Of a stretch of DNA of 64,000 nucleotides, positions 15,834 to 59,282 are shown piece by piece. The position numbers and the translations under genes were made by a program. Position 1 is the stretch's first letter. The number at the start of each line of letters is the position of its first letter. The stretch is from Lachnospiraceae bacterium (GTDB lineage Bacteria > Bacillota > Clostridia > Lachnospirales > Lachnospiraceae), in contig JAFQCK010000015.1 of assembly GCA_017416465.1 (NCBI GenBank), positions 94,825 through 158,824 on the forward strand, read 5' to 3'. The notes below the pieces were generated by a model that did no database searches, was not told where the DNA came from, and was given only the letters and a program-made list of their open reading frames with translations.

Positions 15834-18800
15834 ATGAATTTCAACAAAAAACTGAGAAAAGTACTCAGTATGTTTTTGGCGTTTTTAATGTTTTGTTCTG
15901 TGACATTAACAGATATGGCATTAATGACATCAAAGACTAAGGCTGAAGCTGCAATGAACCAATATGGTTTATTGGATAAAGCATGTGACGGCCTTATACT
16001 TCACTGCTGGAATTGGTCATATTCTAATATTAAGAGTAGTATGGCTGATATTGCAGCAGCAGGATACACATCTTTACAGACATCGCCTGTACAGATGCCA
16101 AAAGACGCAGGTAATGACACACAGGGAAATTGGTGGAAGGTATATCAGCCTACAACACTTAGTATGGTTGAGAATCATCCATGGTTTGGATCAAAAGCTG
16201 AATTTAAGGCTATGTGTGATGAAGCAGAGAAATATGGAATTAAAGTTATCGTAGATATTGTAGCTAACCATATGGCTAACAATACAGGTTCTCAAGGAAA
16301 CTGTAGAGGAGATATCTGCAGTCAGAACGATGCTACATTCAGAGATGATGATTCATGTTGGCATTTAAATGGTTCTACGTATATTGATTATGGTAATCAG
16401 CATCGTAATGGAGATACAACAAGTTTAACACATGGATTTGGTGGTTGGCCTGATCTTAATACAGGAAATACAAAGGTTCAGAACGCAATTATTTCTTTAT
16501 TAAAAGAATGTGTTGACCTTGGAGCAGATGGTTTCAGATTTGATGCTGCTAAGCATATCGAACTTCCAACTGATCCGGGTGGAGCTTCAGACTTCTGGCC
16601 AAATGTTACAAGTGCAATCCGAGCATACAAGTCAGATGTATACCTTTATGGAGAAATTCTTGATGATTCAGCAACAAGTATCTCTAACTATACAAAATAT
16701 CTTGCGGTAACTGATAACAGAGCAGGTAACTCAACAAGATATGGTGTAAGAGAAAATAATATTGGTAAAGCAGCTAATTCTGCATTAACATATGATGGAC
16801 AGCTTGGAGATAATATTGTTCTTTGGTCTGAATCGCATGATACATATGCAAATGATAACTTTACAGGTGAGTCAGCTAAATTTTCACAGGATCAGATTAA
16901 CAGAGCATGGTGTATCATAGCAGCACGTGATTTTGCAGCACTTTATTATATTCGTCCGGGCAGTACAAGTGCAGCAATGGGTTCTAAGAGTACAAATACA
17001 GCATGGAAAGATACAGAAATAGTAGCTGTTAATAAATTCCACAATTACTTCAATGGAACATCTGAATATATGTCATCTTGTGATAATTCAGTAGTTCTTG
17101 TTGAGAGAGGTTCTAAGACAGCAACTGGTGGTGTAGTACTTGTTAATATTGGTGGAGGCTCTAAATCAGTAAGTGGAGCAACTACACATTTATTAGCAGA
17201 TGGTACATACAAAGATCAGGTATCAGGTAGTACATTTACTGTATCAGGCGGAAAGATTTCTGGACAGATTGGAAACACAGGTGTTGCAGTTGTTTATAAT
17301 GCAGAGCCTATCGTGTTAACACCAACACCAACTATTTCTAAAGAAGGTGGAGAATTCTCTACTGATACATTGTCATTAACAATCGGATTATCTAATGCTA
17401 CAAGTGGTACATATAAGATTGGTAGTGGTTCAGCTACAACATATACATCATCTAAATCAATTACTATTGGTTCAGATATGTCAATTGGTGATAGTGTAAC
17501 TATTACACTTACAGCTACAGATGGTTCAAAGACAACAACAAAGACATATACATTTACAAAGACAGAGTACATAGAACCAGAGGGAAATATTGCATATCTT
17601 AAACTTCCTTCAGGATGGTCAACACCTGTTAAATGTTATGCATATGATTCTGCTACAGAAACAGTTAACAACGGAGTATGGCCAGGTCAGGAAATGACAT
17701 TGGATTCAGAAACAGGATACTATAAGTATGAGGTTCCTTCAAGTATTGAAAAACCAAGAGTAATTTTCTATAGCTCAGATGTAAACAGATATCCTGCAGA
17801 TATGGAAAAAGGTTTATTGTTTGAAGAAGAATGCCCATATCTTTATAAAGATGGAAGTTGGTCAAAATATAGCCCAACACCAACAACAGGTACAGTTGTA
17901 GTTAAGTATGTAGATGGGTCAAATAATGAAATCGCTACATCTAAGACTACAAAGGGAACAATTGGTTCGTCTTATACAACAACAGCAGCAACTGTTGATG
18001 GATATACACTTAAGACGACACCGTCTAATGCAACAGGTAAATATACAGCTGGAACAATTACTGTTACATATGTATATGAAGAAATACCGGACACAGATCC
18101 TAAAGTTACAACTTCTCTTGCTTCAGGATCAACATTTAAAACAGAAACACAGACAATTACACTTACTTTAGCAAATGCTACAAGTGGTACATATTCAGTT
18201 GATGATGGTCCTGTTAAAACATTTACAAGCACAGCAAGTGTTGTACTTGGACAGGGTAAAGTGGCAGATTCAACAGTAACAGTTAAAGCAACAGCTAAAG
18301 GAACAGACGGAACAACAAAGAGCTTTACATTTACTTATAATAAACAGTTCAATGGAACAATTAATGAAGAAACAAGTGTTTCAACAGCTAGTTTAGCAAC
18401 AGCTAAAGCGTCGTCATTAGCATCATACTATTCAACAAATGAAAATGGTGTTGGTGTTAAGAAGACAATTACAGTTGACGGTAGCTTATCAGATTGGGAT
18501 AGCTCAATGTTAATTGCACAGGGTACAGCTAATGATGACCCACGTGTATATCGTCCAAACTCAATGTACGAGGTACCAATTGATTTATATGCACTTTATG
18601 GAGCGTATGATGATAGTAACCTTTATCTCATGTGGGAAATGACAAATGTTCAGGACGTAGTTGCACCAAATGATGATTATCCATTATCACAGGGTGTACT
18701 TTATCAGACAATGAACGTACCATTCTTTATTGCAATTGATACAAAAGATTCTAAAACTGCAATTGGTAATAAAGGACAGCTTCAAACAACTGGAACAATT

Positions 18801-20582
18801 TGGGATTCAGGAATTACATTCGAAAATAGCTTTAACAGATTAATTGCTATTTCTACAAATGGTGCAAACGGACCATTCTTATATGAAGGAGATAGCACAG
18901 GACTTAATCCTGTGGAAATTGCAGCAAGAGCAGAAACAGGAATTGAATTCGATTATGGTCTAGGAATTCTTAGCAAAAATGTATACGGTATTGATAAAGC
19001 TTATGGTGAATACAATAACCGTGTTGTTGGAGATATGTGTAATGAAAATGCAGCTTGGGTAGACTTTAATACAAAGGGACATAGCAGTTCAACAATGGAC
19101 TTCCATTATGAAATGGCAATTCCATTTGAATCATTAGGCGTAAGTGCAAGTGATGTAGCAAGTAATGGATTAGGTGTATTACTTATAGCTACAATGGGTA
19201 AATCAGGTATGGACTGCTTACCATATGACTTATCTATGAACGATCAGGCTGATTTAGATGATGCAGCAGGTTCGCAGGAATTCAACAGTTTTGAAAAGAG
19301 TGATGAAGATCACATTACAACAGCATTTGCAGGTGTTGGTAAAATAGGTGAAATTGTACCTCCAACTCCGGATGAGTTAGAACTTAACTTTGGTGCAGAT
19401 AAGTCTTCACCACAGGCTACAGGAACAGCTCTTACATTAAATGGTATTGCAGAAGGTGGAACAGCACCTTACACATATAAATACTATGTAAATGGTTCAT
19501 TAGTAGGTACAAAATCAGGAAGTGGTGAAACATCAGTAGCATGGACACCATCTACAAGTGGCAAATACTTAATTAAGTGTATCGTTACAGATGCAGATGG
19601 TAACAGTAAAACAAGTGCTAAGTATTACAATATTGAAGGAAACTCAGGGTATGATGATGGCTGGGTAAAAGTAAGTAACAATTGGTATTATTATGTCAAT
19701 GGAAAGAAAGCAACAGGTTGGAAATTAATTAATACTAAATATTACTATTTTGATGCATCAGGTGTAATGCAGGCATCTAAGTGGGTTGGTAACTACTATT
19801 TGAAATCTGATGGTGTTATGGCAACATCAGAATTCGTAGGAGATTACTACGTAGATGAAAATGGTGTTTGGGTAACAGGTTCTAAATGGTTACAGATTGA
19901 TGGTAAGTATTATTATCTTGCAAAAGGTGTTGTACAGAAATCAAAATGGGCAAAAGTAGGTTCATACTATTATTACTTCGATGCATCAGGTGTAATGCAG
20001 GCAAATAAGTGGATTAGTAATAAATACTATGTAAAATCTAATGGTGTTATGGCAACATCAGAGTTTGTAGGAAATTACTATGTAGATGCAAATGGTGTTT
20101 GGGTAACAGGAACAAAATGGGTTAAGGTAGGAGATGACTACTATTATCTTGTAAAAGGTGTTGCACAGAAATCAAAATGGGTAAAAGTAGGAACAAAATA
20201 CTATTACTTCGATGCATCAGGTGTAATGCAGGCAAATAAATGGATTTCTAACAAATATTATGTAAAAGCTGACGGTTCAATGGCAACATCAGAATTTGTA
20301 GGCAACTACTATGTGAATGCAAGTGGTGCTTGGGTAACAGGTACACAGTGGGCTAAGGTAGGAGATGACTACTATTATCTTGTAAAAGGTGTTGTGCAGA
20401 AGTCAAAATGGGTAAAAGTAGGAACAAAATACTATTACTTTAACGAAACTGGTGTAATGCAGTCATCTAAGTGGATAGGAAACTATTATGTAAAAGCAGA
20501 TGGCTCTATGGCAGTATCAGAATGGGTTGATAATGGTAAATATTATGTAGGTGCTGATGGACTATGGGTAAAGAATCCATAA
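15834..20582 (+). CDS. Secreted multidomain alpha-amylase (GH13_28, CBM26, CBM74-like, CW-binding repeats)
   Basis: 1582 aa. The signal peptide covers residues 1-39 (cut near AEA-A). The catalytic domain (about 43-490) resembles AmyE-type GH13_28, with GLILHCWNWSYSNIKSSM and AAGYTSLQTSPVQ. Nucleophile Asp237 (DGFRFDAAKH), acid/base Glu274 (LYGEI) and Asp336 (WSESHD) are present, so it should cut alpha-1,4 bonds of starch. After a beta domain (about 495-578) comes a CBM26-like module (about 584-680, with GVWPGQEM), a MucBP-like domain (about 686-750) and another beta domain. A region of about 320 residues (about 852-1172, DGSLSDWDSSMLIAQG, MWEMTNVQDVV) fits CBM74, a granular-starch binder. An Ig-like domain precedes CW-binding repeats (about 1275-1582). 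AGGAGG precedes the ATG. It forms its own transcription unit. Confidence 0.92.
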   Translation: MNFNKKLRKVLSMFLAFLMFCSVTLTDMALMTSKTKAEAAMNQYGLLDKACDGLILHCWNWSYSNIKSSMADIAAAGYTSLQTSPVQMPKDAGNDTQGNWWKVYQPTTLSMVENHPWFGSKAEFKAMCDEAEKYGIKVIVDIVANHMANNTGSQGNCRGDICSQNDATFRDDDSCWHLNGSTYIDYGNQHRNGDTTSLTHGFGGWPDLNTGNTKVQNAIISLLKECVDLGADGFRFDAAKHIELPTDPGGASDFWPNVTSAIRAYKSDVYLYGEILDDSATSISNYTKYLAVTDNRAGNSTRYGVRENNIGKAANSALTYDGQLGDNIVLWSESHDTYANDNFTGESAKFSQDQINRAWCIIAARDFAALYYIRPGSTSAAMGSKSTNTAWKDTEIVAVNKFHNYFNGTSEYMSSCDNSVVLVERGSKTATGGVVLVNIGGGSKSVSGATTHLLADGTYKDQVSGSTFTVSGGKISGQIGNTGVAVVYNAEPIVLTPTPTISKEGGEFSTDTLSLTIGLSNATSGTYKIGSGSATTYTSSKSITIGSDMSIGDSVTITLTATDGSKTTTKTYTFTKTEYIEPEGNIAYLKLPSGWSTPVKCYAYDSATETVNNGVWPGQEMTLDSETGYYKYEVPSSIEKPRVIFYSSDVNRYPADMEKGLLFEEECPYLYKDGSWSKYSPTPTTGTVVVKYVDGSNNEIATSKTTKGTIGSSYTTTAATVDGYTLKTTPSNATGKYTAGTITVTYVYEEIPDTDPKVTTSLASGSTFKTETQTITLTLANATSGTYSVDDGPVKTFTSTASVVLGQGKVADSTVTVKATAKGTDGTTKSFTFTYNKQFNGTINEETSVSTASLATAKASSLASYYSTNENGVGVKKTITVDGSLSDWDSSMLIAQGTANDDPRVYRPNSMYEVPIDLYALYGAYDDSNLYLMWEMTNVQDVVAPNDDYPLSQGVLYQTMNVPFFIAIDTKDSKTAIGNKGQLQTTGTIWDSGITFENSFNRLIAISTNGANGPFLYEGDSTGLNPVEIAARAETGIEFDYGLGILSKNVYGIDKAYGEYNNRVVGDMCNENAAWVDFNTKGHSSSTMDFHYEMAIPFESLGVSASDVASNGLGVLLIATMGKSGMDCLPYDLSMNDQADLDDAAGSQEFNSFEKSDEDHITTAFAGVGKIGEIVPPTPDELELNFGADKSSPQATGTALTLNGIAEGGTAPYTYKYYVNGSLVGTKSGSGETSVAWTPSTSGKYLIKCIVTDADGNSKTSAKYYNIEGNSGYDDGWVKVSNNWYYYVNGKKATGWKLINTKYYYFDASGVMQASKWVGNYYLKSDGVMATSEFVGDYYVDENGVWVTGSKWLQIDGKYYYLAKGVVQKSKWAKVGSYYYYFDASGVMQANKWISNKYYVKSNGVMATSEFVGNYYVDANGVWVTGTKWVKVGDDYYYLVKGVAQKSKWVKVGTKYYYFDASGVMQANKWISNKYYVKADGSMATSEFVGNYYVNASGAWVTGTQWAKVGDDYYYLVKGVVQKSKWVKVGTKYYYFNETGVMQSSKWIGNYYVKADGSMAVSEWVDNGKYYVGADGLWVKNP
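20223..20275 (+). repeat. 53-bp block identical to 24373-24425
   Basis: A CW-repeat coding block in amylase 1. It is identical over 53 bases to 24373-24425 in amylase 2, including third codon positions. Confidence 0.9.
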
Positions 20583-20871: not shown

Positions 20872-23800
20872 ATGAAAGCAAGAAAAAAGTTTTTTATGTT
20901 AGGTAAAAAAACTTTAGCTACAGTTTTGGCAATGACTACAGTTGCTGTAGGTGCGTTTAGCGGAATGACATTCGCACAAAAAGAAACAGAAGTAACTGTT
21001 CAGGCTTCAAGCTCAATTTTGTCTAATGAAGACAGAGGCGTAATTTATGCTAATTCGCGTACGGATTTCCGAGATGAGACAATTTATTTTGTAATTACTA
21101 CAAGATTCTTTGACGGAGATTCAAGTAACAACACTAAAACATCAGAGGATACAAAAGCACAGAACCCTGATAGTGACCCATCATGGAGAGGTGATTTTGC
21201 GGGACTTATTGAAAAGCTTGATTATATCAAGGCTTTAGGTTTTACAGCTATTTGGATTACACCGGTAGTTGAGAATGATTCAGGATATGATTACCATGGT
21301 TATCATGCATATAATTTTAGTGCAGTTGATACAAGATATGAATCTAATGGTATTACATATCAGGATTTAATTAATGCAGTTCATGAAAAGGGAATGAAGA
21401 TAATTCAGGACGTGGTTTTGAATCATACATGTAACTGGGGTGAAGAAAATCTTCTTCAGATTACAAGTGATGTATATTCTACAAGAAATCAGGTAGTTAT
21501 GAATGGTACAGGTGACCCTGATAATATTTATCATCACAATGGTTTCTGTGGCGGTGGTGACTGGGATAACTACGAAGCACAGAGAAAGACAATCGCAGAT
21601 GACTGTTTCGACTTAGAGACGGAGAATCCAACTGTTTACAATTATCTTGTAGATTGTTATACAGATTATATCGAAATGGGTGTAGACGGTTTCCGTATTG
21701 ATACAGTTAAGCATATTTCAAGACTTACATTTAACACAGTATTCCTTCCTGCATTTAAAAAAGCAGGTGGAGATGATTTCTACATGTTTGGCGAGGTTTG
21801 TACAAAGGGACATGATGTATGGTATCGTGGAGCACCACCTATCTCAACATGTTTCTATACATGGGCAGATTCCTCAACATGGACTTCAAAATGGAGTACA
21901 GATACTGCATCTAACGAAGCATTAGTAGAAGCTCATTACAATGCTAATATGGATTGTGGTAGTCAGCCAACAAGTGATAATGCTTTCCTTAAAGGAAATG
22001 AGTATCATACACCTGACTATAGTCAGAAATCAGGAATGGACGTTATTGACTTCCAGATGCATTGGAGTTTCAATGATGCAAACAGTGCATTTAATACAGC
22101 AAAAGGTGAAGACCAGTATTTTAATGATTCAACATGGAACGTTGTATATGTAGATTCGCATGACTATGCTCCGGATCAGTGTCAGACACAGAGATATACA
22201 GGTGGTACAACTAAGTGGGCAGAAAATCTTTCACTTATGTTTACTTTTAGAGGAATTCCTTGTCTCTACTATGGTAGTGAAATTGAGTTCCAGGCAGGAA
22301 AACCTATTGACGTAGGTCCTAACTCGCCATTATCACAGACAGGTAGAGCATACTTTGGTGACCATATAGAAGGAACTGTAGAAGCAACAGGATTTACAGT
22401 ATTTGATAACCTAAGTGGTGAAGTAGAGAATACTCTTGATTCTACACTTTCACAGCATATTATGAGACTTAACAGAATTCGTCAGGCAATACCTGCTCTT
22501 AGAAAAGGTCAGTATTCAACAGACGGATGTAACGGAAATATCGCATTCAAGAGAAGATATACAGATGCTACAACAGACAGTTTTGCTTTAGTAGCAATCT
22601 CAGGTGGTGCTACATTCTCAGGTATTCCGAATGGAAAATATGTGGATGCAGTAACAGGTGATGTTCAGAATGTAACAAATGGAACACTTACAGCTTCTGT
22701 ATCAGGACAGGCGAATATGAAAGTATATGTTCTTGATACAGCTAAAACACCGGCTCCGGGAAGAGTAATTCCAAATGGTGATTACCTTACAGATGGTGGT
22801 TCAGCAACTTTAATTAAGAATGAAAGAGTTGATGATAATACTGTTAAACCAACAAGCATAACAGTAAGTCCTACATCAGTTTCTGTTTTAGAAGGAAATA
22901 CAACTACAGTAACAGCAACAGTTTTACCAACAGATGCGTCAAACAAAAAAGTAACATGGACATCAAGTAATGATTCTGTTGCAACAGTTTCAGGTGGAAC
23001 AATTACAGGTGTTTCAGTAGGTACAGCAACGATTACAGCGAAGACAAGTAATGGATTGACAGCAACAGTTTCAGTAACAGTAAAAGAAAATCCTAATATA
23101 GTTAAGCCAACAGGTGTAACAGTAAGTCCTACAACACTTACATTAACAGAAGGAGATGCCAGCAAAGTAACAGCAACAGTTGCACCTTCAAATGCAACAA
23201 ATAAGACAGTTACATGGACATCGGCTGATACATCAGTAGCAACAGTAGATAGTACAGGTCTTGTAACCGCTGTAGGAGAAGGTTCGACAACAATTACAGC
23301 AAAAACAAGTAATGGATTGACAGCAACAGTTTCAGTAACAGTTGAGGGTAAAACGTTTACTACCTTAGAAAATGGTGTATATTTTGAAAAACCATCAAGT
23401 TGGGGCTCAGACGTATATGTATATATGTGGAAAAAGAGCAATAGCGAAAAGTTAACGGGTGAATGGCCTGGTACAAAGATTCAAAACTTAGAAGACAATA
23501 TCTATGGATTCTCATGTAATGTAGATACATCAGATGCGATGATTATATTTAATGCAGGTTTGAATCAGCCTCAGACAGATGACCTTACATTCGAAGGCTT
23601 AGGGCTTTATGATACCTCAGGATGGGTAAAAGAGATAACAGAAAAAGGTAAAGTTTCAATTCAATATGTAGATGAAGATGGAAATGTTCTATCTACAAAG
23701 TCAATGTCAGGAGATGTAGGTGCATCTTATTCTACAGTAGCAATTACAATTGACGGATATAAATTAAAAACAACACCATCTAATGCAAATGGTACATATA

Positions 23801-47972: not shown

Positions 47973-47993
47973 AAGTAGAAGAGAGAGTTTGAA

Positions 47994-48674: not shown

Positions 48675-48676
48675 AA

Positions 48677-49555: not shown

Positions 49556-49576
49556 TAAAGTTAAAGGAGCCTACCT

Positions 49577-51601
49577 ATGGATTTACAAAATAACGATGTA
49601 GTGATATCAGTAGTAATACCGGCTTATAATAGAGCGAATATTATAAAAGAATGTTTAGATAGTGTTGTAGCACAGACATATAAAAATATTGAAGTTATAG
49701 TAGTTGATGACTGTTCAAAGGACAACACAGCCGATATAGTTGATGCATATGATGATGCCAGAGTGAGAAAGTGTATCAGACTTGATAAGAATAGTGGTGC
49801 ATGTAAGGCAAGAAATGTGGGAGCAGATGCTGCTATAGGAAAGTATATTGCTTTTCAAGATAGTGATGATATATGGTTTCCGGAAAAACTTGAAAAACAA
49901 CTTAAATATTTAGAAGAAGGAAATTTTGATTTTGTTTTTTGTGGAATGAAACGTATTGGTCAGAACACAGAATCGTATTATCCATATTTAGGGTTTGATG
50001 AAAATGCTGATGCACAGACACAGATATTAATGGAAAATAGATGTTCTACACAGTGCATGTTAATGACAAAGGAGCTATTTGAAAAGGTTAGATTTGATGA
50101 GTCGTTTAGAAGATATCAAGATTGGGATTTTAGTATAAGAGCATCAGCAATTGGAAAAATGGGTTATTTATCAGAACCATTGCTTTCTTCAGAAGTTCAG
50201 AGTAATAGTATTTCGAGTAATGTTTCAAGATTTGATAGTTTGAAAGTAATATATAATAAATATGAAAATATTATTAGCCAGAATGATATGTTAAAAGCTA
50301 ATTTTTATAGAAAATTAGGTGGGGAATTATGGAAAGTAGGAGATAGGGAAGGGGCCAGACATTATTATTTAAAATCATTAAAATGGGAATTACATTTCAA
50401 GAGTTTGGCAAAATGTATGATTTCTTTTGTAATTCCAGGTAAAAAAATAAATGTGCAAAAAAACAGTTCAAGAATAAAAGTAGGTATTTTAACTTATCAT
50501 AGGGCTAAAAATTATGGAGCTTTTTTGCAATCGTATGGCTTATGTAAAAGATTGAATTTAGAGTGGGACATCGATGCGGAAATTATCGATTTTTATATGA
50601 ATAAAGAAACTGTGCATTACAGAACAACCAGAAATCCTGCGAGATTGATAAAACATTTTAAATCCTATAATTTTAAAAGGAAAATGAACAATGAATTTAA
50701 AAAAGTCTATGATATTGCACCATTTTCAAAAGAAACATGTGAATCTGATAGTATAGAAGAATTCAATAAGTTTGTTGAAGGAAAGTATGATGTTATAATT
50801 GTAGGAAGTGATGAAGTATGGAAGGTGAATTCGTTTAGAGGTTTTCCAAGCCCTTATTGGTTGCCTGAAAAAATGGATTGTAGGAAATTGGCATATGCTA
50901 CATCATCAAGAAACGATATCTCTAAATTGAGTGATGACACATTGGTTCAAATGAAAGATATGTTGAGTGATTTTGATTATATTACAGTTAGAGATAATAA
51001 GACATATGATTTGGTCGATAATATTTTAGATAAGGAAAAAAAAATTGATATTATGCCGGACCCTTCTTTTATATATAATTACCCGGTTTCTAAAGAAAGA
51101 GGAAGAAATGTTTTGAGAAAGAAAGCCGGAATAAATAAGGAAGATAAGGTTGTTGTTGTAATGACAGAAAATAATGAACTTCAAAATGCAATTTCGAAGG
51201 AATTAGGAAATGAGTATAGACTTGTTTCTGTATTCGAGTATTCTAAGAGTATTAAAAATTTGTCAAATATATCTCCTTTTGAATGGATTGATGTTCTTGC
51301 ATGTGCAGATATAGTACTTGCTTCGTATTTTCATGCAGTATGTTTTTCGATTATTCTGGGTAAAAAGTTTTTGGCATTTGGTACAGAGATAAAGAAGGAT
51401 AAACTTATAGGAGTCTTATCCCAGATGAAGTTAGAAGACAGATATGTAAATATTAATACTGAGTTGTATAAGAATGGAGAAATTAAGAGACTTGTTAATG
51501 AGGTTTGTTTAAGTGATTACGATAGAACTGAAGAAATAGATGAGGTAAGAGAGAGTTTTAATGGATTTTTAGAGAAGATTCGTAAGAAAGACGAGAGGTA
51601 A
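49577..51601 (+). CDS. Fusion: GT2 glycosyltransferase and polysaccharide pyruvyl transferase
   Basis: 674 aa. Residues about 1-270 are a GT2 domain (VSVVIPAYNRA-like start; VVDDCSKDN; metal-binding DSDD at 95-98; a WD-type acceptor motif in RYQDWDFSIRASAIG). Residues about 295-674 are a pyruvyltransferase domain (GILTYHRAKNYGAFLQSYGL; VGSDEVWKVN; MPDPSFIYN; ASYFHAVCFSIILGKKF) that would add pyruvate from PEP as a ketal to a sugar. The fusion suggests that one enzyme adds the sugar and its pyruvyl group. No stop or frameshift lies between the halves. TAAAGGAG precedes the ATG. Confidence 0.88.
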   Translation: MDLQNNDVVISVVIPAYNRANIIKECLDSVVAQTYKNIEVIVVDDCSKDNTADIVDAYDDARVRKCIRLDKNSGACKARNVGADAAIGKYIAFQDSDDIWFPEKLEKQLKYLEEGNFDFVFCGMKRIGQNTESYYPYLGFDENADAQTQILMENRCSTQCMLMTKELFEKVRFDESFRRYQDWDFSIRASAIGKMGYLSEPLLSSEVQSNSISSNVSRFDSLKVIYNKYENIISQNDMLKANFYRKLGGELWKVGDREGARHYYLKSLKWELHFKSLAKCMISFVIPGKKINVQKNSSRIKVGILTYHRAKNYGAFLQSYGLCKRLNLEWDIDAEIIDFYMNKETVHYRTTRNPARLIKHFKSYNFKRKMNNEFKKVYDIAPFSKETCESDSIEEFNKFVEGKYDVIIVGSDEVWKVNSFRGFPSPYWLPEKMDCRKLAYATSSRNDISKLSDDTLVQMKDMLSDFDYITVRDNKTYDLVDNILDKEKKIDIMPDPSFIYNYPVSKERGRNVLRKKAGINKEDKVVVVMTENNELQNAISKELGNEYRLVSVFEYSKSIKNLSNISPFEWIDVLACADIVLASYFHAVCFSIILGKKFLAFGTEIKKDKLIGVLSQMKLEDRYVNINTELYKNGEIKRLVNEVCLSDYDRTEEIDEVRESFNGFLEKIRKKDER

Positions 51602-51604
51602 TAT

Positions 51605-52909
51605 ATGAAAGATTTTAAAATAGTTTTTCGTAGTAGCTATGGTGGATTTTTGCATTATTATATTGCGTGGGGATTGATTTTCTTTTCAACTATAGCATCA
51701 CTTTTTAATTTTATACCGGGAACCGTAACAAGAAATTTTATGGTTGGTATATTTATAGTTTTTTTATTTATTTGTAGTATGTTAAAGGGAATAAACAGAA
51801 ATATATTTTTGTGGATAGTTTTAATGATTGGTATAACCTTGATTAATGGGTATTATCTCAAGAATCCTAATATATATACAGTAAATTTTGTGCCATATCT
51901 GACATTTATTTGTGCACTGGTATTATGTTGGGTAGGAGAAATGCGAATTGACTGGGTAGATATTTATCTAAAAGGCGCTCTTATGGCTTATTGTATTTAT
52001 GCGGGTGTAACGGTTATAACAAGATTTTTACCAAGTTTATATATTAATCATATTGCGCCAATATTAGCGGGAAGTAATAGTCAATCATTAGTTGCATTTT
52101 ATAAATCGGGTTGTATGGCAGGATTGACATTGCATTATTCTATAAATGGAATGTTGATAACCGTAGGAGTGTTAATTATTTATTCTAAAATTTTATTATA
52201 TAAAAAAACAAAAAAAGATTATTTAATATTTGGGGTAATGATTTTGGCATTATTGTTTACCGGTAAAAGAGGACATTTAATATTTGCGTTGCTATCTATG
52301 TTAGTTGTATATTTTATAAATAGTGGAAAAAAAATTGGAACCAGATGGTGGAAGATTTTAAGAGCCATAGTGTTAATTATTTTTGCAGGTATTATTATAT
52401 ATAAATATGTACCTGCAGCAAGAGTGGTTTTTGACCGAATTGTAGAAATGTTTGAATCTGATGATATAACTAATAATAGAACCAGATGGTGGAATGTTGC
52501 TATAACATATTTTAAACAAAATATTTTGTTTGGAATTGGTTGGGGGAATTTTGCCGGGTTATGTGCAAGAGTGGAAGGATATTATGCACATTGTCATAAT
52601 GTATATCTCCAGCTATTATGTGAAACCGGAATAGTTGGATTTACTATATATATTTCATGGATGGTAAAATGTTTGTATTGTGCATTTAAAAATTTTATTT
52701 ATGCAAGAGATATAAAGATGCAGGATGAAAAAGATTATTATTTTATGGGATTTTCATTAGGATATCAGATTTTCTTTTTATTATATTGTTTTACAGGAAA
52801 TCCTCTGTATGATGAAGAGATGTTTATACCTTATTTTATCTCATGCGCGATAAGTTTATATTATAGAAAAAGAATATTACGTGGAGATATTAAAGCGATT
52901 CAAGAATAA
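51605..52909 (+). CDS. O-antigen ligase/Wzy-type polymerase
   Basis: 434 aa with about 11-12 transmembrane helices. It has the Wzy_C/WaaL pattern in the large extracellular loop (NRTRWWNVAITYFKQNILFGIGWGNF, then GYYAHCHNVYLQLLCETGI with the conserved HN). It would polymerise repeat units or ligate them outside the membrane. It begins 3 bp after the preceding stop and is followed by the flippase gene, the classic Wzy/Wzx pair. Polymerase and ligase roles cannot be distinguished by sequence. Confidence 0.85.
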   Translation: MKDFKIVFRSSYGGFLHYYIAWGLIFFSTIASLFNFIPGTVTRNFMVGIFIVFLFICSMLKGINRNIFLWIVLMIGITLINGYYLKNPNIYTVNFVPYLTFICALVLCWVGEMRIDWVDIYLKGALMAYCIYAGVTVITRFLPSLYINHIAPILAGSNSQSLVAFYKSGCMAGLTLHYSINGMLITVGVLIIYSKILLYKKTKKDYLIFGVMILALLFTGKRGHLIFALLSMLVVYFINSGKKIGTRWWKILRAIVLIIFAGIIIYKYVPAARVVFDRIVEMFESDDITNNRTRWWNVAITYFKQNILFGIGWGNFAGLCARVEGYYAHCHNVYLQLLCETGIVGFTIYISWMVKCLYCAFKNFIYARDIKMQDEKDYYFMGFSLGYQIFFLLYCFTGNPLYDEEMFIPYFISCAISLYYRKRILRGDIKAIQE

Positions 52910-52939
52910 TTTGTTAATAATAAAAGGCTGGATAGAAAG

Positions 52940-54343
52940 ATGAGTAGAGAAAAAGAATTTGCAAAGAATACCGTGGTGTTAGCGATTGGAAGATATTTAC
53001 CAAAGCTTTTTGCATTAATTACAATACCAATAGTGACGGCAACTTTAACTAAAGATGAATATGGAACATATGACCTTATATGTACTTTGGTTTCGTTGTT
53101 ATTACCTATTATTACACTTCAGATTCAGTCGGCTGCATTTAGGTTTTTAATAGATTGCAGAGGTGATAAGAAAGAATCAGGAAAGATTATTTCTAATATA
53201 TTCTTTTTTACATTGATTACGACTTTGATAACTATTGTAATATTTTTCTTTATATACAATAAGGTTTCAATTATTACTAGAGTGTTGATATGTATGTATT
53301 TTTGTACAGATATATTGTATCTTTTGTTAGGGCAGGTAGCCAGAGGATTAGGGAATAACTCTATATATTCAGTTAGTGCATTTGTTGTATCATTAACAAA
53401 TGCTTCGTTAGTAGTATTGACATTAAAGGTAGCGGATTTGGGTCTTAATGGAATATTGTTTTCATATCTTTTCGGACAATTGATAGCGTGTATATACATT
53501 GCTAAAAAGATTAATGTTTTATCATATATACATATTAAAGATTGCTCGAAAGACATGCTTAAGAAATTGTTATCATATTCATGGCCTATGGTGCCAAATA
53601 ATTTATCAAATTGGGTGCTTAAAATTTCGGATAGAATAATAATCACCTCAGTATGTGGTGTTGAAGCTAATGCGGTGTATGCAGTGGCTAATAAGATTCC
53701 GTATCTTCTTTCAGATGCACAAAGTGTAATGGTTATGGGATGGCAGGAGAATGCATCTATTGCAGCAAAGGATAAGGATTCAAGTGAATATTATTCGGAA
53801 ATGTTCAGAACTATGTTTAAAATGGTGATAAGTGTGACGGGAGCACTAGTGGCTGCTACACCTATAATGTTTGAATTGCTGATTAAAGGTGATTATGATG
53901 AAGCGTACTATGAGATGCCAATTCTCACAATAGGAATGTTCTTTTATTGTATGAGTGCATTTTTGGGAGGAATATATGTTGCCTATAAAAATACAAAAAA
54001 AGTTGCTTTGACTACTGTGATGGCTGCTGCGATTAATGTAGTGGTTAATTTGTTGTTAGTTAAACGCATTGGAATCAGAGCAGGGTCTGTTTCTACGTTA
54101 GTAGCTTATCTGGTTTTGTTTGGATATAGAATGTTTGATGTGAATAAGATAAAGAAGATTAAATATAATTATATTGAAATAATTGGTCTTACAATTATTT
54201 TGCTTGGAATGAACTATCTTACATTTCAGAGAAATCTGTATTTGGATATAATTAATGTTGTAATAGCTGTTATTTTAATGTTTACATGTAACAGAGCATT
54301 AATTAGCAAGATATGTAAACGAATATTTTGTAAATCAAAATAA
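52940..54343 (+). CDS. Polysaccharide flippase (Wzx/MATE-type)
   Basis: 467 aa with about 12-14 transmembrane helices. It has the Wzx N-terminus KEFAKNTVVLAIGRYLPKLFALITIPIVTATLTKDEYGTYDL (shown in two parts: KEFAKNTVVLAIGRY and LFALITIPIVTATLTKDEYG) and a mid-region YSWPMVPNNLSNWVLKISDR. It should flip undecaprenyl-linked repeat units to the outer face. Its neighbours Wzy and LicD support this. No initiating phosphoglycosyl transferase is in the window, so the first step is encoded elsewhere. Confidence 0.87.
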   Translation: MSREKEFAKNTVVLAIGRYLPKLFALITIPIVTATLTKDEYGTYDLICTLVSLLLPIITLQIQSAAFRFLIDCRGDKKESGKIISNIFFFTLITTLITIVIFFFIYNKVSIITRVLICMYFCTDILYLLLGQVARGLGNNSIYSVSAFVVSLTNASLVVLTLKVADLGLNGILFSYLFGQLIACIYIAKKINVLSYIHIKDCSKDMLKKLLSYSWPMVPNNLSNWVLKISDRIIITSVCGVEANAVYAVANKIPYLLSDAQSVMVMGWQENASIAAKDKDSSEYYSEMFRTMFKMVISVTGALVAATPIMFELLIKGDYDEAYYEMPILTIGMFFYCMSAFLGGIYVAYKNTKKVALTTVMAAAINVVVNLLLVKRIGIRAGSVSTLVAYLVLFGYRMFDVNKIKKIKYNYIEIIGLTIILLGMNYLTFQRNLYLDIINVVIAVILMFTCNRALISKICKRIFCKSK

Positions 54344-54355: not shown

Positions 54356-55177
54356 ATGGTAGAAATAAAAATGAGCGAGACACAAGAAGTGTCGCTTGAG
54401 ATTTTAAAGGCAATTACTGATATTTGTGAAGAACAAAATTTGAGATATTCTTTGGTGTATGGAACATTAATTGGTGCGATTCGCCATAAGGATTATATTC
54501 CTTGGGATGATGATGTAGATATTATGATGCCACGTCCGGATTATGATAAATTGTTGCTTTATTTAAAAGACCATATAAAAGAATATCCGAATCTTAAAGT
54601 GTTTAATCGTGAGGAGTGTCCTGAATATCCTTACATGATTACTCGTATTAGTGATGACAGATATGTTATAAAAATGGAAAACGAAAAACCATATGGAATG
54701 GGAGTGTTTATAGACATTTATCCATATGATGGTTTAGGCAAGACTAAAGAAGAAGCAATTAAGTTTGGAATGAAGGGTGATAGAATTTCGTCTTTATGTT
54801 ATCAGGCAACAAGGGAACATTTTGCTATTGAAACTACTACGTCGGTGTTTAGAAAGATAATAAAATATCCTGTATATTTGTTCGCAAAGATGATAGGAAA
54901 AGATTATTTTCAAAATAAGCTTGAGAAATTAGCAAGAGTTAAAGATTATGATGATAGTGAATATGTTGGTTGTGTAATATGGCTTTCTTGGGGAGCAAAA
55001 GATATTTTTCCGAGAAAATGGTTTGACGAAACGATTAAAGTTCCTTTTGGGAAATATGAGTTTAGAGTTCCAAAGTATTATGATAAAGTGTTGAGACATG
55101 AATATGGAGATTATATGCAATTGCCACCTGAAAAGGATAGAATAGGACATCATTATTTTAAAGTTTATAAAAAATAG
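54356..55177 (+). CDS. licD: LicD-family phosphocholine transferase
   Basis: 273 aa. It has the LicD pattern: SLVYGTLIGAIRHKDYIPWDDDVDIMM (seen as SLVYGTLIGAIRH and IPWDDDVDIMMPR, with the metal-binding DDDVD at residues 51-55), VFIDIYPYDGL and GAKDIFPRKWFDE-type acceptor elements. LicD enzymes transfer phosphocholine from CDP-choline to a sugar of a surface polymer (teichoic acids in pneumococcus). Some relatives move other phosphodiesters. Cytoplasmic. The neighbours, LicC/LicA-like enzymes and a BCCT transporter, support choline. AAGGAG precedes the ATG. Confidence 0.88.
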   Translation: MVEIKMSETQEVSLEILKAITDICEEQNLRYSLVYGTLIGAIRHKDYIPWDDDVDIMMPRPDYDKLLLYLKDHIKEYPNLKVFNREECPEYPYMITRISDDRYVIKMENEKPYGMGVFIDIYPYDGLGKTKEEAIKFGMKGDRISSLCYQATREHFAIETTTSVFRKIIKYPVYLFAKMIGKDYFQNKLEKLARVKDYDDSEYVGCVIWLSWGAKDIFPRKWFDETIKVPFGKYEFRVPKYYDKVLRHEYGDYMQLPPEKDRIGHHYFKVYKK

Positions 55178-55244
55178 TAGACAAAGAAATAATGGTGTGA
55201 TATATTATGTCTAAATGTTCACGAAAGTTCAAAAGGAGAAGAAG

Positions 55245-57014
55245 ATGAACAAACAAAGTTTTGATGTACTAAAAATTATTGTAGAAGCCGGCTATTCTAA
55301 TCAAAGAATAATAGCAGAGGAAACCGGTTATTCTTTAGGAGTAGTTAATAAAGCTATAAAAGAATTGTCGGAAAACGAGTATTTGGATTCAGATATGTGC
55401 ATAACGAATAAGGCTAAGACTTGTATTAAAAATTGTAAACCTAACAATGCAATTATTCTTGCGGCAGGATTTGGAATGAGAATGGTTCCGATTAATATGG
55501 AAACTCCAAAAGGATTATTAGAGGTTAGGGGGGAAGTATTAATAGAAAGAACTATCAGACAGCTTCATGAAGCTGGGATTGAAGATATATCTATTGTTGT
55601 TGGGTTTATGAAAGAACGCTATGAGTATCTGGTAGATGAATATAATGTTAAGCTAATTGTAAATACTGAATATTCAACAAAGAATAATTTATATTCTGTT
55701 AATTTGATTAAGGATAAAATTAATAATTCTTACATAATCCCTTGTGATATTTGGTGTAAGAATAATCCTTATAGTAAGTATGAGCCTTATTCATGGTATA
55801 TGGTAAGTGATGAGGTAACGGAGTTTTCAGATGTAAGAGTTAATAGAAAGTTTGAACTTGTATCGGTTGATGATGATGAAAAAGGAAATGCGATGTTAGG
55901 GATTAGTTACATAACAAGTAGTGACTCGGATACATTAAGAGAAAGAATAACCGATATGTGTAAAAATGATAAGAATATAAATAAATTTTGGGAAGAAGCT
56001 TTATATAAAAACGGAAGCATGATTGTGTCTGCAAAGGTTGTTAACAGCTTGGATGCAGTTGAAATTAATACATATGAGCAGCTTAGGGAATTAGATAGTG
56101 ATTCTAATCATTTAAAGACAGAAGCAATTAGTATTATTAAAGATGTTTTGAATGTGGATTATGAAGATATTAAAAACATTAGTGTTCTAAAAAAAGGTAT
56201 GACTAATCGTTCATTTTTCTTTGAATGTCTAGGTAAAAAATATATAATGAGAATTCCGGGAGAAGGAACAGAACAGTTAATTAACAGAAAAGAAGAAGCT
56301 GATGTATATAAAACCATAAAAGGTAGGGGGATATGTGATAATATTTTGTATATTAATCCTGAAACAGGGTATAAGATAACAGAATATATTGAGGGAGCAA
56401 GAGTGTGTGACCAGTTAAATCCTAAAGATGTAAAAAAGTGTATGAAAAAATTAAAAGATTTTCATGACTTGAATTTAAAAGTTGGACATAGGGTTGATAT
56501 ATTTGGTCTGATAGAATTTTATGAATCTTTATGGAACGGAATACCATCAATTTATAAAGATTATGAAAAAACAAAACAATATGTATTTAGTTTGAAAGAA
56601 TATATTGAAAAAAATAAAAAAGAAGAAATAATTACACATATTGACGCTAATCATGATAATTTTTTGATTTATAATGATGACGAAGGAAACGAAGAAATCA
56701 GATTGATTGACTGGGAGTATGCAGGAATGCAGGACCCGGACGTTGATATAGCTATGTTTTGTATCTATGCAATGTATGATAGGGAACAGATAGATGAGAC
56801 CATATCTTTGTATTATGTCGACGGTTGTGATGAAACTACAAGAATTAAGATATATTGTTATGTTGCTGCGTGTGGATTGTTATGGAGTAATTGGTGCGAA
56901 TACAAAAGACAGCTGGGAATTGATTTTGGAGAGTATTCTATAAGGCAGTATAGATATGGAAAAGAGTTTTATAAAATTGTTCAGGAAGAACTGACGAAAA
57001 TAGGAGAGAAATAA
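55245..57014 (+). CDS. Fusion: HTH, phosphocholine cytidylyltransferase (LicC-like) and choline kinase (LicA-like)
   Basis: 589 aa from ATG 55245 (AAAAGGAG at 55231-55238). Residues about 1-60 form a winged-helix/MarR-like helix-turn-helix (QRIIAEETGYSLGVVNKAIKEL). About 68-290 is an NTP transferase with AAGFGMRM, ETPKGLLEV and PCDIW. About 300-575 is a choline/ethanolamine kinase fold with catalytic Brenner motif HIDANHDNFLI and LIDWEYAG. It should convert choline to CDP-choline in one polypeptide. The HTH may regulate the gene or only aid oligomerisation. It stops overlapping the next ATG by 1 base (TAATG), so the pair is translationally coupled. Confidence 0.87.
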   Translation: MNKQSFDVLKIIVEAGYSNQRIIAEETGYSLGVVNKAIKELSENEYLDSDMCITNKAKTCIKNCKPNNAIILAAGFGMRMVPINMETPKGLLEVRGEVLIERTIRQLHEAGIEDISIVVGFMKERYEYLVDEYNVKLIVNTEYSTKNNLYSVNLIKDKINNSYIIPCDIWCKNNPYSKYEPYSWYMVSDEVTEFSDVRVNRKFELVSVDDDEKGNAMLGISYITSSDSDTLRERITDMCKNDKNINKFWEEALYKNGSMIVSAKVVNSLDAVEINTYEQLRELDSDSNHLKTEAISIIKDVLNVDYEDIKNISVLKKGMTNRSFFFECLGKKYIMRIPGEGTEQLINRKEEADVYKTIKGRGICDNILYINPETGYKITEYIEGARVCDQLNPKDVKKCMKKLKDFHDLNLKVGHRVDIFGLIEFYESLWNGIPSIYKDYEKTKQYVFSLKEYIEKNKKEEIITHIDANHDNFLIYNDDEGNEEIRLIDWEYAGMQDPDVDIAMFCIYAMYDREQIDETISLYYVDGCDETTRIKIYCYVAACGLLWSNWCEYKRQLGIDFGEYSIRQYRYGKEFYKIVQEELTKIGEK

Positions 57015-57730
57015 TGAATACGGTAAAAAGAGCAATTATTATGGCGGCAGGGTTAGGTAACAGAATGAGACCAATAACTGATGAGATTCCAAAGCCATTA
57101 ATAGAAGTTAATGGGATTAGAATGATTGATACTGTTATAAATGGACTTAAACAAAATGGAATTAATGAGATATATGTGGTTGTTGGATATCTTAAAGAAA
57201 AGTTTAAAGTTTTGGAGGAAGAGTATGAGGGATTAAAGTTAATTGAGAATCCATATTATGACACTTGTAATAATATATCATCATTATATGTTGCCAAACA
57301 ATATTTGGGTGATTGTATAATTTTGGATGGTGATATGATGATTTATAATGAGGAGATATTGTCACCGGAGTTTGAATGTTCGGGTTATAATGCTATATGG
57401 ACTGACGAAGATACAGAGGAATGGTTAATGACTGTAGAAGATGAAAGAGTCGTATCATGTAGTAGGACAGGTGGAAATAAAGGCTACATATTATATAGTA
57501 TTTCCAGGTGGTCTATGGAAGATGGTGAAAGATTAAGACATCATTTAGAGATAGAATTTGAAAAGAATAAAAATACAGATATTTACTGGGATGATGTTGC
57601 TATGTTTGTTTATCCTGATGAATATGAACTGGGGATTAGAAGAATGCAAAAAGGTGATGTTATAGAAATTGATAGTTTTGAAGAACTTGTAAGAGTTGAT
57701 TCAAAGTATGAACAGTTTAAAAAAATATAA
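57014..57730 (+). CDS. licC: CTP:phosphocholine cytidylyltransferase (LicC-like)
   Basis: 238 aa. A sugar-nucleotidyltransferase-like LicC fold with AAGLGNRMRPITDEIPKPL (residues 11-29), a LicC-type VVVGYLKEKF, NNISSLYVA and ILDGDMMI with catalytic Asp. It makes CDP-choline from phosphocholine and CTP. The fusion gene just upstream already has such a domain, so the locus has two; this one may use a different alcohol phosphate or give more flux. It overlaps the upstream stop by 1 base. Confidence 0.87.
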   Translation: MNTVKRAIIMAAGLGNRMRPITDEIPKPLIEVNGIRMIDTVINGLKQNGINEIYVVVGYLKEKFKVLEEEYEGLKLIENPYYDTCNNISSLYVAKQYLGDCIILDGDMMIYNEEILSPEFECSGYNAIWTDEDTEEWLMTVEDERVVSCSRTGGNKGYILYSISRWSMEDGERLRHHLEIEFEKNKNTDIYWDDVAMFVYPDEYELGIRRMQKGDVIEIDSFEELVRVDSKYEQFKKI

Positions 57731-57752
57731 AATTATAGAATGGAGAATTATT

Positions 57753-59282
57753 GTGAAAGAAGAAATGAAGTTAAAAAAACAAATCGATTGGGTTGCTACA
57801 GTTGTACCGTTTGTTGGTGTTGCAATACTATGTGTATTATTTATGTTGTTTCCAACAGGTTCAGCAAATGTTTTGGCGGAGATAAGAGGATTTTTAGGTG
57901 ATGATTGTGGTATCTATTATGCAATTTTAGGACTTGGAATTTTTCTTTGTACATTGTATATAGCATTTTCTAAGTTTGGAAATATTAAACTTGGTAATAC
58001 TGAGAAGCCGGAGTATTCGTCATTTACTTGGGGAACTATGATTTTTACTTCTACTATGGCTGCTGATATTTTGTTTTATTCGTTATGTGAGTGGACGATG
58101 TATGCTAATGAAAGTCATATTGAAGATATGGGTGGTATACAGAAGTGGGCATCTACATATCCATTATTCCATTGGGGACCAATAGCGTGGTGTTTTTATA
58201 TTGTCCTTGCAGTAGCTTTTGGATTTATGCTTCATGTAAGAGGAAGAAATAAGCAGAAGTTTTCTGAAGCATGCAGACCAATCTTAAAAGATAAGGTAGA
58301 TGGTGTATGGGGTAAAGTTATTGATTTGATTGCTATTTTTGCTTTAATTGCAGGAACTGCTACTACATTTTCGTTAGCAACACCTCTTTTGTCAACAGCA
58401 ATTAGTAAAGTATTTGGTGTTGCATCCGGAACAGGTTTAACAATTATAATTTTATTAATTATAGCATTAGTATATACATTTACAGTTTTGTTTGGTATGA
58501 AAGGTATATCTAAATTAGCTTCATATTGTACATATTTATTCTTTGCATTATTGTTGTATGTATTAATAGGTGGTGGAGAGGCAAGATATATCCTTGAAAC
58601 AGGATTTTCTGCACTTGGTAATATGACTCAGAATTTTATTGGGATGTCTACTTGGATGGATCCGCTTAGAGAGAATTCATTCCCACAGAATTGGACAATA
58701 TATTATTGGGCATACTGGATGGTATGGTGTGTGGCAACTCCGTTCTTTATAGGTAAGATTAGTAAAGGCAGAACTATTAAGAATACTATTATTGGTGGCT
58801 ATGGCTGGGGTTTGGCAGGAACATTTACATCATTCATTATTCTAGGAAATTATGGTCTTGCACAACAGGTAAAACATGGAGTAGACGTTTCAGGATATGT
58901 TGCAGAAACAGGAGATTATTCACAGGCAATTATGAAAATATTTGATACATTACCGCTTACAAGTGTAGGTCTTATATTATTGGTAATTACAATGATAGCA
59001 TTTTACTCTACAACATTTGATGCTCTTACAATGGTAGTATCTTCGTATTCTTATAAGAAGCTTGATGTGGATGCAGAACCTGATAAGCGTATTAGAATTT
59101 TTTGGGCAATTATCTTTATTGTTTTACCAATTGGACTTATTTTTGCTGAAAATTCAATGTATAGTTTGCAATCGGTATCTATTATAGCTGCCTTTCCAAT
59201 AGGAATAATTGTTTTGCTTATAGTGTCAAGTTTTTTCAAAGATGCTAAAAAATATTTAGAAGAAAAAGAAAAGTCTAAGTAG
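57753..59282 (+). CDS. BCCT-family betaine/choline/carnitine transporter
   Basis: 509 aa from GTG 57753 (GGAG at 57742-57745, 7-bp spacing); ATG 57765 is an alternative. About 12 transmembrane helices. The BCCT signature is visible as NWTIYYWAYWMVWC with the aromatic ligand box, and FTSTMAADILFYSLCEW near TM3. It imports a trimethylammonium compound. Here, after licC, choline is the best guess, replacing the DMT permease LicB of other lic operons. Carnitine or glycine betaine are alternatives. The gene is last in the operon before a terminator. Confidence 0.9.
   Translation: MKEEMKLKKQIDWVATVVPFVGVAILCVLFMLFPTGSANVLAEIRGFLGDDCGIYYAILGLGIFLCTLYIAFSKFGNIKLGNTEKPEYSSFTWGTMIFTSTMAADILFYSLCEWTMYANESHIEDMGGIQKWASTYPLFHWGPIAWCFYIVLAVAFGFMLHVRGRNKQKFSEACRPILKDKVDGVWGKVIDLIAIFALIAGTATTFSLATPLLSTAISKVFGVASGTGLTIIILLIIALVYTFTVLFGMKGISKLASYCTYLFFALLLYVLIGGGEARYILETGFSALGNMTQNFIGMSTWMDPLRENSFPQNWTIYYWAYWMVWCVATPFFIGKISKGRTIKNTIIGGYGWGLAGTFTSFIILGNYGLAQQVKHGVDVSGYVAETGDYSQAIMKIFDTLPLTSVGLILLVITMIAFYSTTFDALTMVVSSYSYKKLDVDAEPDKRIRIFWAIIFIVLPIGLIFAENSMYSLQSVSIIAAFPIGIIVLLIVSSFFKDAKKYLEEKEKSK

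What the first reader, a model, noticed from the sequence alone, without database searches (positions are those of the whole stretch)
15834..59282. Possible choline-anchored surface starch-degrading system
Seen: seven secreted proteins (three amylases, a pullulanase, three proteases) end in the same CW-binding repeat family. Eighteen kilobases on, the same strand carries LicD, a LicC-LicA fusion, LicC and a BCCT transporter behind polysaccharide assembly genes. Known: CW_binding_1 repeats include the pneumococcal choline-binding repeats, which hold proteins on phosphocholine-decorated teichoic acid, and lic genes make that decoration. Inference: the polysaccharide locus makes a phosphocholine-bearing polymer on which the enzymes are docked non-covalently, an amylosome-like arrangement without sortase or cohesin-dockerin. 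I saw no sortase LPXTG motif in these proteins.
Basis: partly seen in the sequence, partly recalled or inferred. Interest (0 to 1): 0.88.

Follow-up and report, generated by a model that had tools for sequence, protein, structure and literature searches.

The report
Choline-anchored starch enzymes beside lic genes
A gut-type bacterium appears to hold its starch- and protein-digesting enzymes on its surface by gripping phosphocholine tags that neighbouring genes would make, the pneumococcal way of anchoring proteins put to use for digestion; the anchoring is inferred from sequence and has not been shown in the laboratory.

Summary
Seven secreted proteins (three GH13 amylases, a type I pullulanase, three papain-type proteases) end in 11-17 choline-binding-type repeats and lack LPXTG. 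The same strand carries LicD, a wHTH-LicC-LicA fusion, LicC and a BCCT transporter behind polysaccharide genes.

Choline anchoring is well supported, not proven. Repeats match choline-binding modules best by sequence; fold does not discriminate. In the genus, repeats and LicCA occur in the same 3 of 9 genomes, and orthologous amylases carry the repeats only there. In the family 25 of 32 LicCA genomes are repeat-rich, against 13 of 148 others. In two other genomes a lic cassette lies beside a repeat-bearing amylase.

Corrections: the anchor is general (also on GH25, CHAP and RCC1 proteins); the genome has sortase genes; nothing shows a complex; the decorated polymer is unknown; LicD does not track; ten repeat-rich genomes lack LicCA. 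Repeat-bearing Butyrivibrio polysaccharidases were published in 2010, without choline.

Missed earlier: two proteases carry starch-binding CBM25 and CBM26.

The parts
15834..20582 (+). Amy1: GH13 amylase, MucBP, 16 parsed choline-binding-type repeats at the C-terminus
   Evidence: PF00128 8.8e-18, Choline_bind_2 3.6e-50; repeats
20872..24906 (+). Amy2: GH13 amylase, Big_2, CBM26, MucBP, 17 parsed repeats
   Evidence: PF00128 1.5e-43, CBM26 6.4e-16, Choline_bind_2 1.4e-70
25066..29037 (+). Amy3: GH13 amylase, Big_2, CBM26, MucBP, 15 parsed repeats; probable ATG start (mechanical ORF starts at TTG 24967)
   Evidence: PF00128 7.7e-43, CBM26 9.8e-18, Choline_bind_2 1e-48; module model pLDDT 95.3
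29296..32880 (+). Prt1: papain-family (C1) protease with CBM25, Big_2, CBM26, MucBP, 11 parsed repeats
   Evidence: PF00112 9.6e-10; CBM25 4.6e-15, CBM26 9e-16; Q/C/H/N invariant in three paralogues
32910..37379 (+). Type I pullulanase with CBM26, AMPK1_CBM, PUD, CBM48, MucBP, 12 parsed repeats
   Evidence: TIGR02104 675.1 bits against cut-off 504.5
37608..41105 (+). Prt2: C1-like protease with CBM25, Big_2, CBM26, MucBP, 12 parsed repeats
   Evidence: CBM25 5e-17, CBM26 2.7e-16; Peptidase_C1 below cut-off; residues conserved
41225..54343 (+). Polysaccharide cluster: acyltransferase, DUF1972 glycosyltransferase, LVIVD protein, hexapeptide transferase, Caps_synth, ATPase-like, GT2, GT2-pyruvyltransferase, Wzy_C protein, Polysacc_synt protein
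   Evidence: Pfam
54356..55177 (+). LicD-family phosphotransferase
   Evidence: PF04991 7.2e-45
55215..57014 (+). wHTH-LicC-LicA fusion: phosphocholine cytidylyltransferase and choline kinase
   Evidence: Best PDB matches 4r77 choline kinase 4.3e-30 and 1jyk CTP:phosphocholine cytidylyltransferase 1.3e-25; HTH_24 2e-07
57014..57730 (+). Stand-alone LicC-like cytidylyltransferase
   Evidence: 1jyk 8.9e-35, next hit 1.7e-10
57696..59282 (+). BCCT transporter, proposed choline importer (substrate not shown)
   Evidence: PF02028 4.4e-125; a BCCT near the LicC-LicA relative in 37 of 40 loci; NCBIfam specific models all below cut-off, the choline BetT model weakest
59393..61714 (+). Prt3: papain-family protease, Lectin_like, 11 parsed repeats
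   Evidence: PF00112 4.4e-21, PF18560 4.4e-21
61855..64000 (+). Fourth GH13 amylase, cut by the end of contig C72; an ORF with CBM26 and choline-binding repeats at the end of contig C99 may be its rest
   Evidence: PF00128 2.4e-28; L121; compared by eye, not joined

Best explanation
The C-terminal repeats are choline-binding modules that hold the starch enzymes and proteases non-covalently on a phosphocholine-bearing envelope polymer of the same cell. BCCT imports choline, LicA phosphorylates it, LicC makes CDP-choline, and LicD or an unidentified transferase puts phosphocholine on a surface glycan. Shown by sequence: domain content, lic enzyme identity, cosegregation of repeats with LicCA, and presence or absence of the module on orthologous amylases. 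Inferred: choline binding, phosphocholine on the polymer, which polymer it is, and the BCCT substrate. The module is a general surface anchor in this genome; the starch enzymes are one group of its users.
For: Lic enzymes: best PDB matches are a choline kinase (4r77) and CTP:phosphocholine cytidylyltransferase (1jyk) (that both are pneumococcal is recalled). Repeats: of 26 PDB sequences at E up to 1e-3, 20 are choline-binding proteins or lysins (some named so from recall) and 6 toxin entries; none is a glucansucrase. PspA or PspC models outscore the glucan-repeat model in 7 of 7 proteins, all below cut-off. 44 of 87 repeat interfaces hold Trp, Trp/Tyr, Met and the next Tyr, compare the canonical site in PMC5137146. 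Cosegregation: genus 3 of 3 LicCA genomes with repeats against 0 of 6 (p 0.012, without own genome 0.036); family 25 of 32 against 13 of 148, or with weaker relatives 28 of 45 against 10 of 135; class 5 of 21 against 1 of 321. Anchor: the Amy2 orthologue in LicCA+ G186 has repeats, amylase orthologues in LicCA- G180-G183 do not. In the one orthologue pair compared, Amy2 catalytic domains are 83% identical and the last 230 residues 42%, while those of five G000 proteins are 56-72% identical to each other. Linkage: lic cassette beside a repeat-bearing GH13 in G185 (L108) and L001. The module is also on a GH25 lysozyme and a CHAP protein.
Against: Only 6 of 94 repeats have the strict Trp, Trp, Tyr, Met set; the second aromatic is Tyr in 74, Trp in 19, Phe in 1. 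Ten of 38 repeat-rich family genomes have no LicC-LicA relative covering the kinase. LicCA genomes with fewer than five repeat matches: 7 of 32 in the family, 16 of 21 in the class sample. The three repeat-rich genomes outside the own family belong to one genus, with weak LicCA relatives (109-116 bits), and a fourth genome of it has such a relative without a repeat match. LicD is absent from LicCA+ G186 and present in four LicCA- genus mates. Among specific BCCT models the choline transporter BetT scores below the carnitine and betaine models, all below cut-off. Fold does not separate choline-binding from glucan-binding or toxin repeats; the highest listed TM-score, 0.61, is to S. mutans GtfD. 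A repeat-bearing protein lies near the lic cassette in only 6 of 40 loci. Associations are not corrected for phylogeny. No biochemistry.
Confidence: 0.75

Rival explanations
1. The repeats are glucan-binding (starch or a self-made glucan), like the related repeats of glucansucrases, and help the enzymes hold substrate rather than anchor them.
For: The same Pfam family includes glucan-binding repeats (PMC4929436 passages); TIGR04035 matches 7 of 7 proteins below its cut-off; fold resemblance to GtfD; few strict two-Trp sites.
Against: No glucansucrase among 34 PDB sequence hits up to E 10; the module is also on GH25, CHAP and RCC1 proteins; five of the seven proteins already have CBM25 or CBM26; modules follow the lineage, not the enzyme, in the one pair compared; cosegregation with LicCA.
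Confidence: 0.11
2. The repeats bind another wall component and the lic locus only decorates a capsule; the two are linked by shared lifestyle or descent, not function.
For: Ten repeat-rich genomes lack LicCA relatives and 7 of 15 genomes with window-type LicCA have fewer than five repeat matches; LicD does not track; associations not corrected for phylogeny.
Against: 3 of 3 against 0 of 6 within one genus; 17 of 17 family genomes with the more divergent LicCA type are repeat-rich; lic cassettes near repeat-bearing amylase, GH25, L,D-transpeptidase and CAP proteins.
Confidence: 0.11
3. The enzymes are released into the medium and the repeats have no anchoring role.
For: No covalent anchor motif was found.
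Against: 11-17 repeats per protein and strong homology to wall-anchoring modules.
Confidence: 0.03

Closest known systems
Pneumococcal choline-binding proteins (LytB, CbpL, LytC, CbpJ) and the lic pathway
   Same: Tandem aromatic repeats, with long and short ones in turn as in CbpL; LicA, LicC and LicD homologues
   Different: The effector domains here are amylases, a pullulanase and starch-binding proteases; LicC and LicA are fused behind a winged helix; BCCT in place of LicB (LicB recalled); polymer unknown
Butyrivibrio proteoclasticus B316 CW-repeat polysaccharidases (Kelly 2010, PMC2914790, passages)
   Same: Nine large cell-associated proteins including Amy13A with C-terminal PF01473 repeats; no dockerins
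   Different: Believed there to anchor to peptidoglycan; the main text has no occurrence of choline or teichoic; no lic link
Clostridium saccharoperbutylacetonicum choline-binding proteins (PMC3593318, whole text)
   Same: A clostridium with choline in its teichoic acids and 66 annotated choline-binding proteins
   Different: The paper names cell-wall lytic modules in at least nine and mentions no starch enzyme
Ruminococcus bromii amylosome and sortase-anchored amylases
   Same: Surface display of starch enzymes with starch-binding modules
   Different: No cohesin or dockerin family in the Pfam tables of the seven proteins and no LPXTG

Membership tests
Choline-binding proteins | Tandem choline-binding repeats of about 20 aa | tested here: met
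   7 of 7 proteins match PF01473, PF19085 and PF19127 over cut-off
Choline-binding proteins | Aromatic box: two Trp, the next repeat's Tyr, Met | tested here: inconclusive
   44 of 87 interfaces with W, W/Y, next Y and M; strict W,W,Y,M in 6 of 94 repeats
Choline-binding proteins | Beta-hairpin solenoid | tested here: met
   Model pLDDT 95.3; top Foldseek hit by E-value is the LytB module, but the fold is shared with GtfD and toxins
Choline-binding proteins | Binds choline; eluted by choline | not testable with these tools
   Needs a wet experiment
lic phosphocholine pathway | Choline kinase and CTP:phosphocholine cytidylyltransferase | tested here: met
   Best PDB matches 4r77 and 1jyk
lic phosphocholine pathway | LicD transferase, tracking with the repeats | tested here: not met
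   LicD is in the window, but none in G186, a fragment in G185, and full matches in four LicCA- genus mates
lic phosphocholine pathway | Choline uptake | tested here: inconclusive
   BCCT in 37 of 40 lic loci, but choline-specific BetT model far below cut-off
lic phosphocholine pathway | Phosphocholine on a surface polymer | not testable with these tools
   Needs antibody or NMR
Amylosome or cellulosome | Cohesin-dockerin pairs | tested here: not met
   None in the Pfam tables of the seven proteins; the rest of the genome was not searched for them
Sortase-anchored surface enzymes | LPXTG plus hydrophobic tail | tested here: not met
   0 of 8 proteins, although 4 sortase matches are in the genome
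Glucan-binding repeat proteins | Best match to glucansucrase repeats | tested here: not met
   By sequence 0 of 34 PDB hits are glucansucrases; by fold GtfD does match

The most novel reading that the evidence does not exclude
In many Lachnospiraceae and some other Clostridia, phosphocholine decoration is a general display platform for digestive enzymes, standing in for sortase and cohesin-dockerin. Because choline must be imported, dietary or host choline would set how much starch- and protein-digesting machinery is held on the cell, linking choline supply to polysaccharide use. Starch-binding papain-type proteases on the same platform would strip protein from starch granules.
Probability: 0.3. 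Interest if true: 0.78.

Novelty: new variant of a known kind. Interest (0 to 1): 0.57.

Why it matters
How gut Firmicutes without dockerins or LPXTG motifs keep starch enzymes at the surface is open: a Clostridium butyricum resistant-starch paper (PMC10826348, passages) says the mechanism of starch binding remains unclear and that no sortase motifs are predicted. If choline anchoring is general, choline elution becomes a simple test and a tool to strip and assay surface enzymes, and the 'cell wall binding' polysaccharidases of Butyrivibrio could be reread in the same way.

Tried and rejected
Fold comparison as a test of ligand: rejected, because choline-binding, glucan-binding and toxin repeats all match. 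LicD as a marker of the pathway: rejected, it does not track. Gene proximity as general proof: weak, a repeat-bearing protein lies near the lic cassette in 6 of 40 loci. Amylosome-type complex: no cohesin or dockerin family in the seven proteins. The single-sequence model of the pullulanase module was weak (pLDDT 73.2); the alignment-based model of the Amy3 module was used instead. Literature searches: judged by titles and abstract starts, no listed paper links lic genes to starch enzymes; the library holds open-licence papers only. Papers seen: PMC3593318 whole text; PMC2914790, PMC5137146, PMC4929436, PMC8008677, PMC5716241 and PMC10826348 as passages; all others as listings.

Limits of the counts. 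The repeat search scored at most 39 candidates per genome and 21. LicCA groups were drawn by me by eye, after seeing the listings: type 1 (53-64% identity, and the own genome), type 2 (36-46%), and in the family a third group of 13 weaker or unfused relatives, of which 3 are repeat-rich; with it the family count is 28 of 45 against 10 of 135. G156 and G169 (296 bits, no repeats) fall just below the type 2 line. In the class sample two weaker fused relatives (G318, G339; at most one repeat match) were left out. The family and class samples share some genomes. Of 11 repeat-bearing ORFs near lic cassettes, 10 were scanned. Regions L106, L107, L114, L115 (G185) and L110 (G186) were chosen partly for their repeat matches and are no independent test of anchor presence; L100 and L108 were reached through amylase or LicCA hits. 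L108 has Pfam repeat matches at the contig end but fell below my own repeat profile.
Full report
What is there. The window (G000:C72:94825-158824 of a 3.71 Mb, 172-contig assembly, 89.5% complete) holds seven proteins with choline-binding-type repeats at their C-termini: three GH13 amylases, a type I pullulanase (TIGR02104 over cut-off) and three papain-type proteases. All seven match Choline_bind_1, _2 and _3 over cut-off. A mechanical parse gave 94 repeats, 11-17 per protein. None of eight proteins, the cut fourth amylase included, has an LPxT[GAS] motif; all eight have a hydrophobic N-terminal segment. Behind them lie a polysaccharide cluster and LicD, a winged-helix LicC-LicA fusion, LicC and a BCCT transporter.

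More than first reported. Two proteases carry starch-binding CBM25 and CBM26. A third protein on contig C90, 56% identical to Prt1 over the part aligned, also has CBM25, CBM26 and the repeats, but no Peptidase_C1 match at 1e-3. Gln, Cys, His and Asn at papain-like positions are invariant in the three (their roles recalled from papain). A fourth GH13 starts at 61855 and runs into the contig end in a run of Glu. An ORF at the end of contig C99 starts with a run of Glu and goes on with CBM26 and choline-binding repeats.

Is it choline? The LicA part matches a solved choline kinase best (4r77, 4.3e-30) and both LicC parts match CTP:phosphocholine cytidylyltransferase best (1jyk); that these come from pneumococcus is recalled. 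The Amy3 repeat module matches 34 PDB sequences up to E 10: 20 choline-binding proteins or lysins, led by LytB and CbpL (some placed there from recall of the entry), 6 toxin entries, then flagellin and spike noise, and no glucansucrase. In 7 of 7 proteins a PspA or PspC model outscores the glucan-repeat model, though none reaches its cut-off and the models differ in length. The canonical site (two Trp of one hairpin, a Tyr of the next, a Met) and alternating long and short repeats are described for CbpL (PMC5137146 passages). Here 44 of 87 interfaces keep Trp, Trp/Tyr, Met and the next Tyr. The strict set with two Trp is in only 6 of 94 repeats; the second aromatic is Tyr in 74, Trp in 19, Phe in 1. 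So about half the sites look usable if Tyr can replace the second Trp. The predicted fold is a confident hairpin solenoid (pLDDT 95.3). Foldseek puts LytB first by E-value, but the highest listed TM-score (0.61) is to S. mutans GtfD, and toxins rank high; fold does not settle the ligand.

Cosegregation. In the genus, repeats (PF19085) were found in 3 of 9 genomes (G000, G185, G186) and the LicC-LicA fusion at 61% identity or more in exactly those three; Fisher p 0.012, or 0.036 without the own genome. In 180 family genomes from 179 genera, 38 have at least five repeat matches and 32 have LicCA of type 1 or 2; 25 have both, against 13 of 148 without (p 3.7e-15). With the 13 weaker relatives it is 28 of 45 against 10 of 135 (p 3.2e-13). 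Type 1, like the window, is repeat-rich in 8 of 15 (7 of 14 without the own genome, p 0.011); type 2 (36-46% identity) in 17 of 17 (all). In a class sample of 342 genomes, 5 of 21 LicCA genomes and 1 of 321 others are repeat-rich (p 3.1e-6); outside the own family 3 of 16 against 0 of 311. Those three are one genus with weak LicCA relatives (109-116 bits), so they count as about one event; a fourth genome of that genus has such a relative and no repeat match. Against the link: ten repeat-rich family genomes have no LicC-LicA relative covering the kinase (one of them, G096, has an unfused PF01633 match just over cut-off). LicCA genomes often have fewer than five repeat matches (7 of 32 family, 16 of 21 class). 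None of this is corrected for phylogeny.

Anchor presence. The Amy2 catalytic domain has orthologues at 77-83% identity in G186, G181, G182 and G183 (there on two contig pieces), and Amy3 one at 69% in G180. In LicCA+ G186 the orthologue carries the repeats. In LicCA- G180-G183 the orthologues have other tails, or end early, without repeats, and PF19085 has no match in those four genomes. Between G000 and G186 the Amy2 catalytic domains are 83% identical and the last 230 residues 42%, while those of five G000 proteins (two amylases, pullulanase, protease, lysozyme) are 56-72% identical to each other; modules of G185 and G186 are 60-80% alike across and within the two genomes. So the module follows the lineage rather than the enzyme, in the one orthologue pair compared. 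A starch-binding module would be expected to follow the enzyme; one that binds the cell's own envelope would follow the lineage. That last step is inference.

Linkage. Of 40 GTDB loci with a LicC-LicA relative, 37 have a BCCT in the fetched stretch; two of the other three are short contigs. This points to BCCT as the choline importer. Against it, the specific NCBIfam models are all below cut-off, and the choline transporter BetT (201.6 bits) scores below the carnitine (293.8) and betaine (280.5) models. Six of 40 loci have a repeat-bearing protein within the fetched flanks: in L001 a GH13 with two CBM26 stretches, elsewhere GH25, L,D-transpeptidase, CAP and transglutaminase-like proteins. In G185 the order is LicCA, BCCT, GH13 with repeats at the contig end (L108). 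In the window BCCT is followed by Prt3 and the fourth GH13.

What it is not. The module is not a starch device: elsewhere in the genome it is on a GH25 lysozyme, a CHAP-ricin-lectin protein, an RCC1-repeat protein and several proteins without another clear domain. The genome has 4 sortase matches and all nine genus genomes have some. No cohesin or dockerin family was listed for the seven proteins. LicD is absent from LicCA+ G186, a fragment in G185, and present in LicCA- G180, G167, G183 and G184, so the transferase and the polymer remain open.

Known before. Kelly 2010 (PMC2914790, passages) reported PF01473 repeats on nine large proteins of B. [quoted passage not shown] its main text has no occurrence of choline or teichoic. 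C. saccharoperbutylacetonicum has choline in its teichoic acids and 66 annotated choline-binding proteins (PMC3593318, whole text). Added here is the genomic tie between phosphocholine genes and repeat-anchored starch enzymes. I saw it in no listing, which cover open-licence papers only.

Verdict. Choline anchoring of these enzymes is likely (0.75) and unproven. It is a new variant of a known kind.

Noticed in passing
window 4526-4624 +: SAM riboswitch (RF00162, 65.3 bits) ahead of an ORF at 4768 that looks like S-adenosylmethionine synthetase (by eye, not scanned); ordinary.
   Followed up: no
window 29296-32880, 37608-41105; L123:2301-5177: Papain-like proteins with starch-binding CBM25 and CBM26, three in one genome; they may digest protein around starch granules.
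   Followed up: partly
window 55245-55382: A winged helix (HTH_24) precedes LicC-LicA; 26 of 40 GTDB relatives match the query from residue 11 or earlier, so this part is often kept. Role unknown, perhaps sensing.
   Followed up: partly
window 57014-57730: A second, stand-alone LicC next to the fused one; why two cytidylyltransferases are needed is not explained.
   Followed up: no
window 49577-51601: One ORF joins a GT2 glycosyltransferase and a polysaccharide pyruvyl transferase.
   Followed up: no
L116 and L117 (G000 contig C168): Five large ORFs in a row with choline-binding repeats and no clear catalytic domain; the fifth was scanned only in part.
   Followed up: no
L007 and L019: L,D-transpeptidases (YkuD) with choline-binding repeats within 10 kb of a lic cassette.
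   Followed up: no
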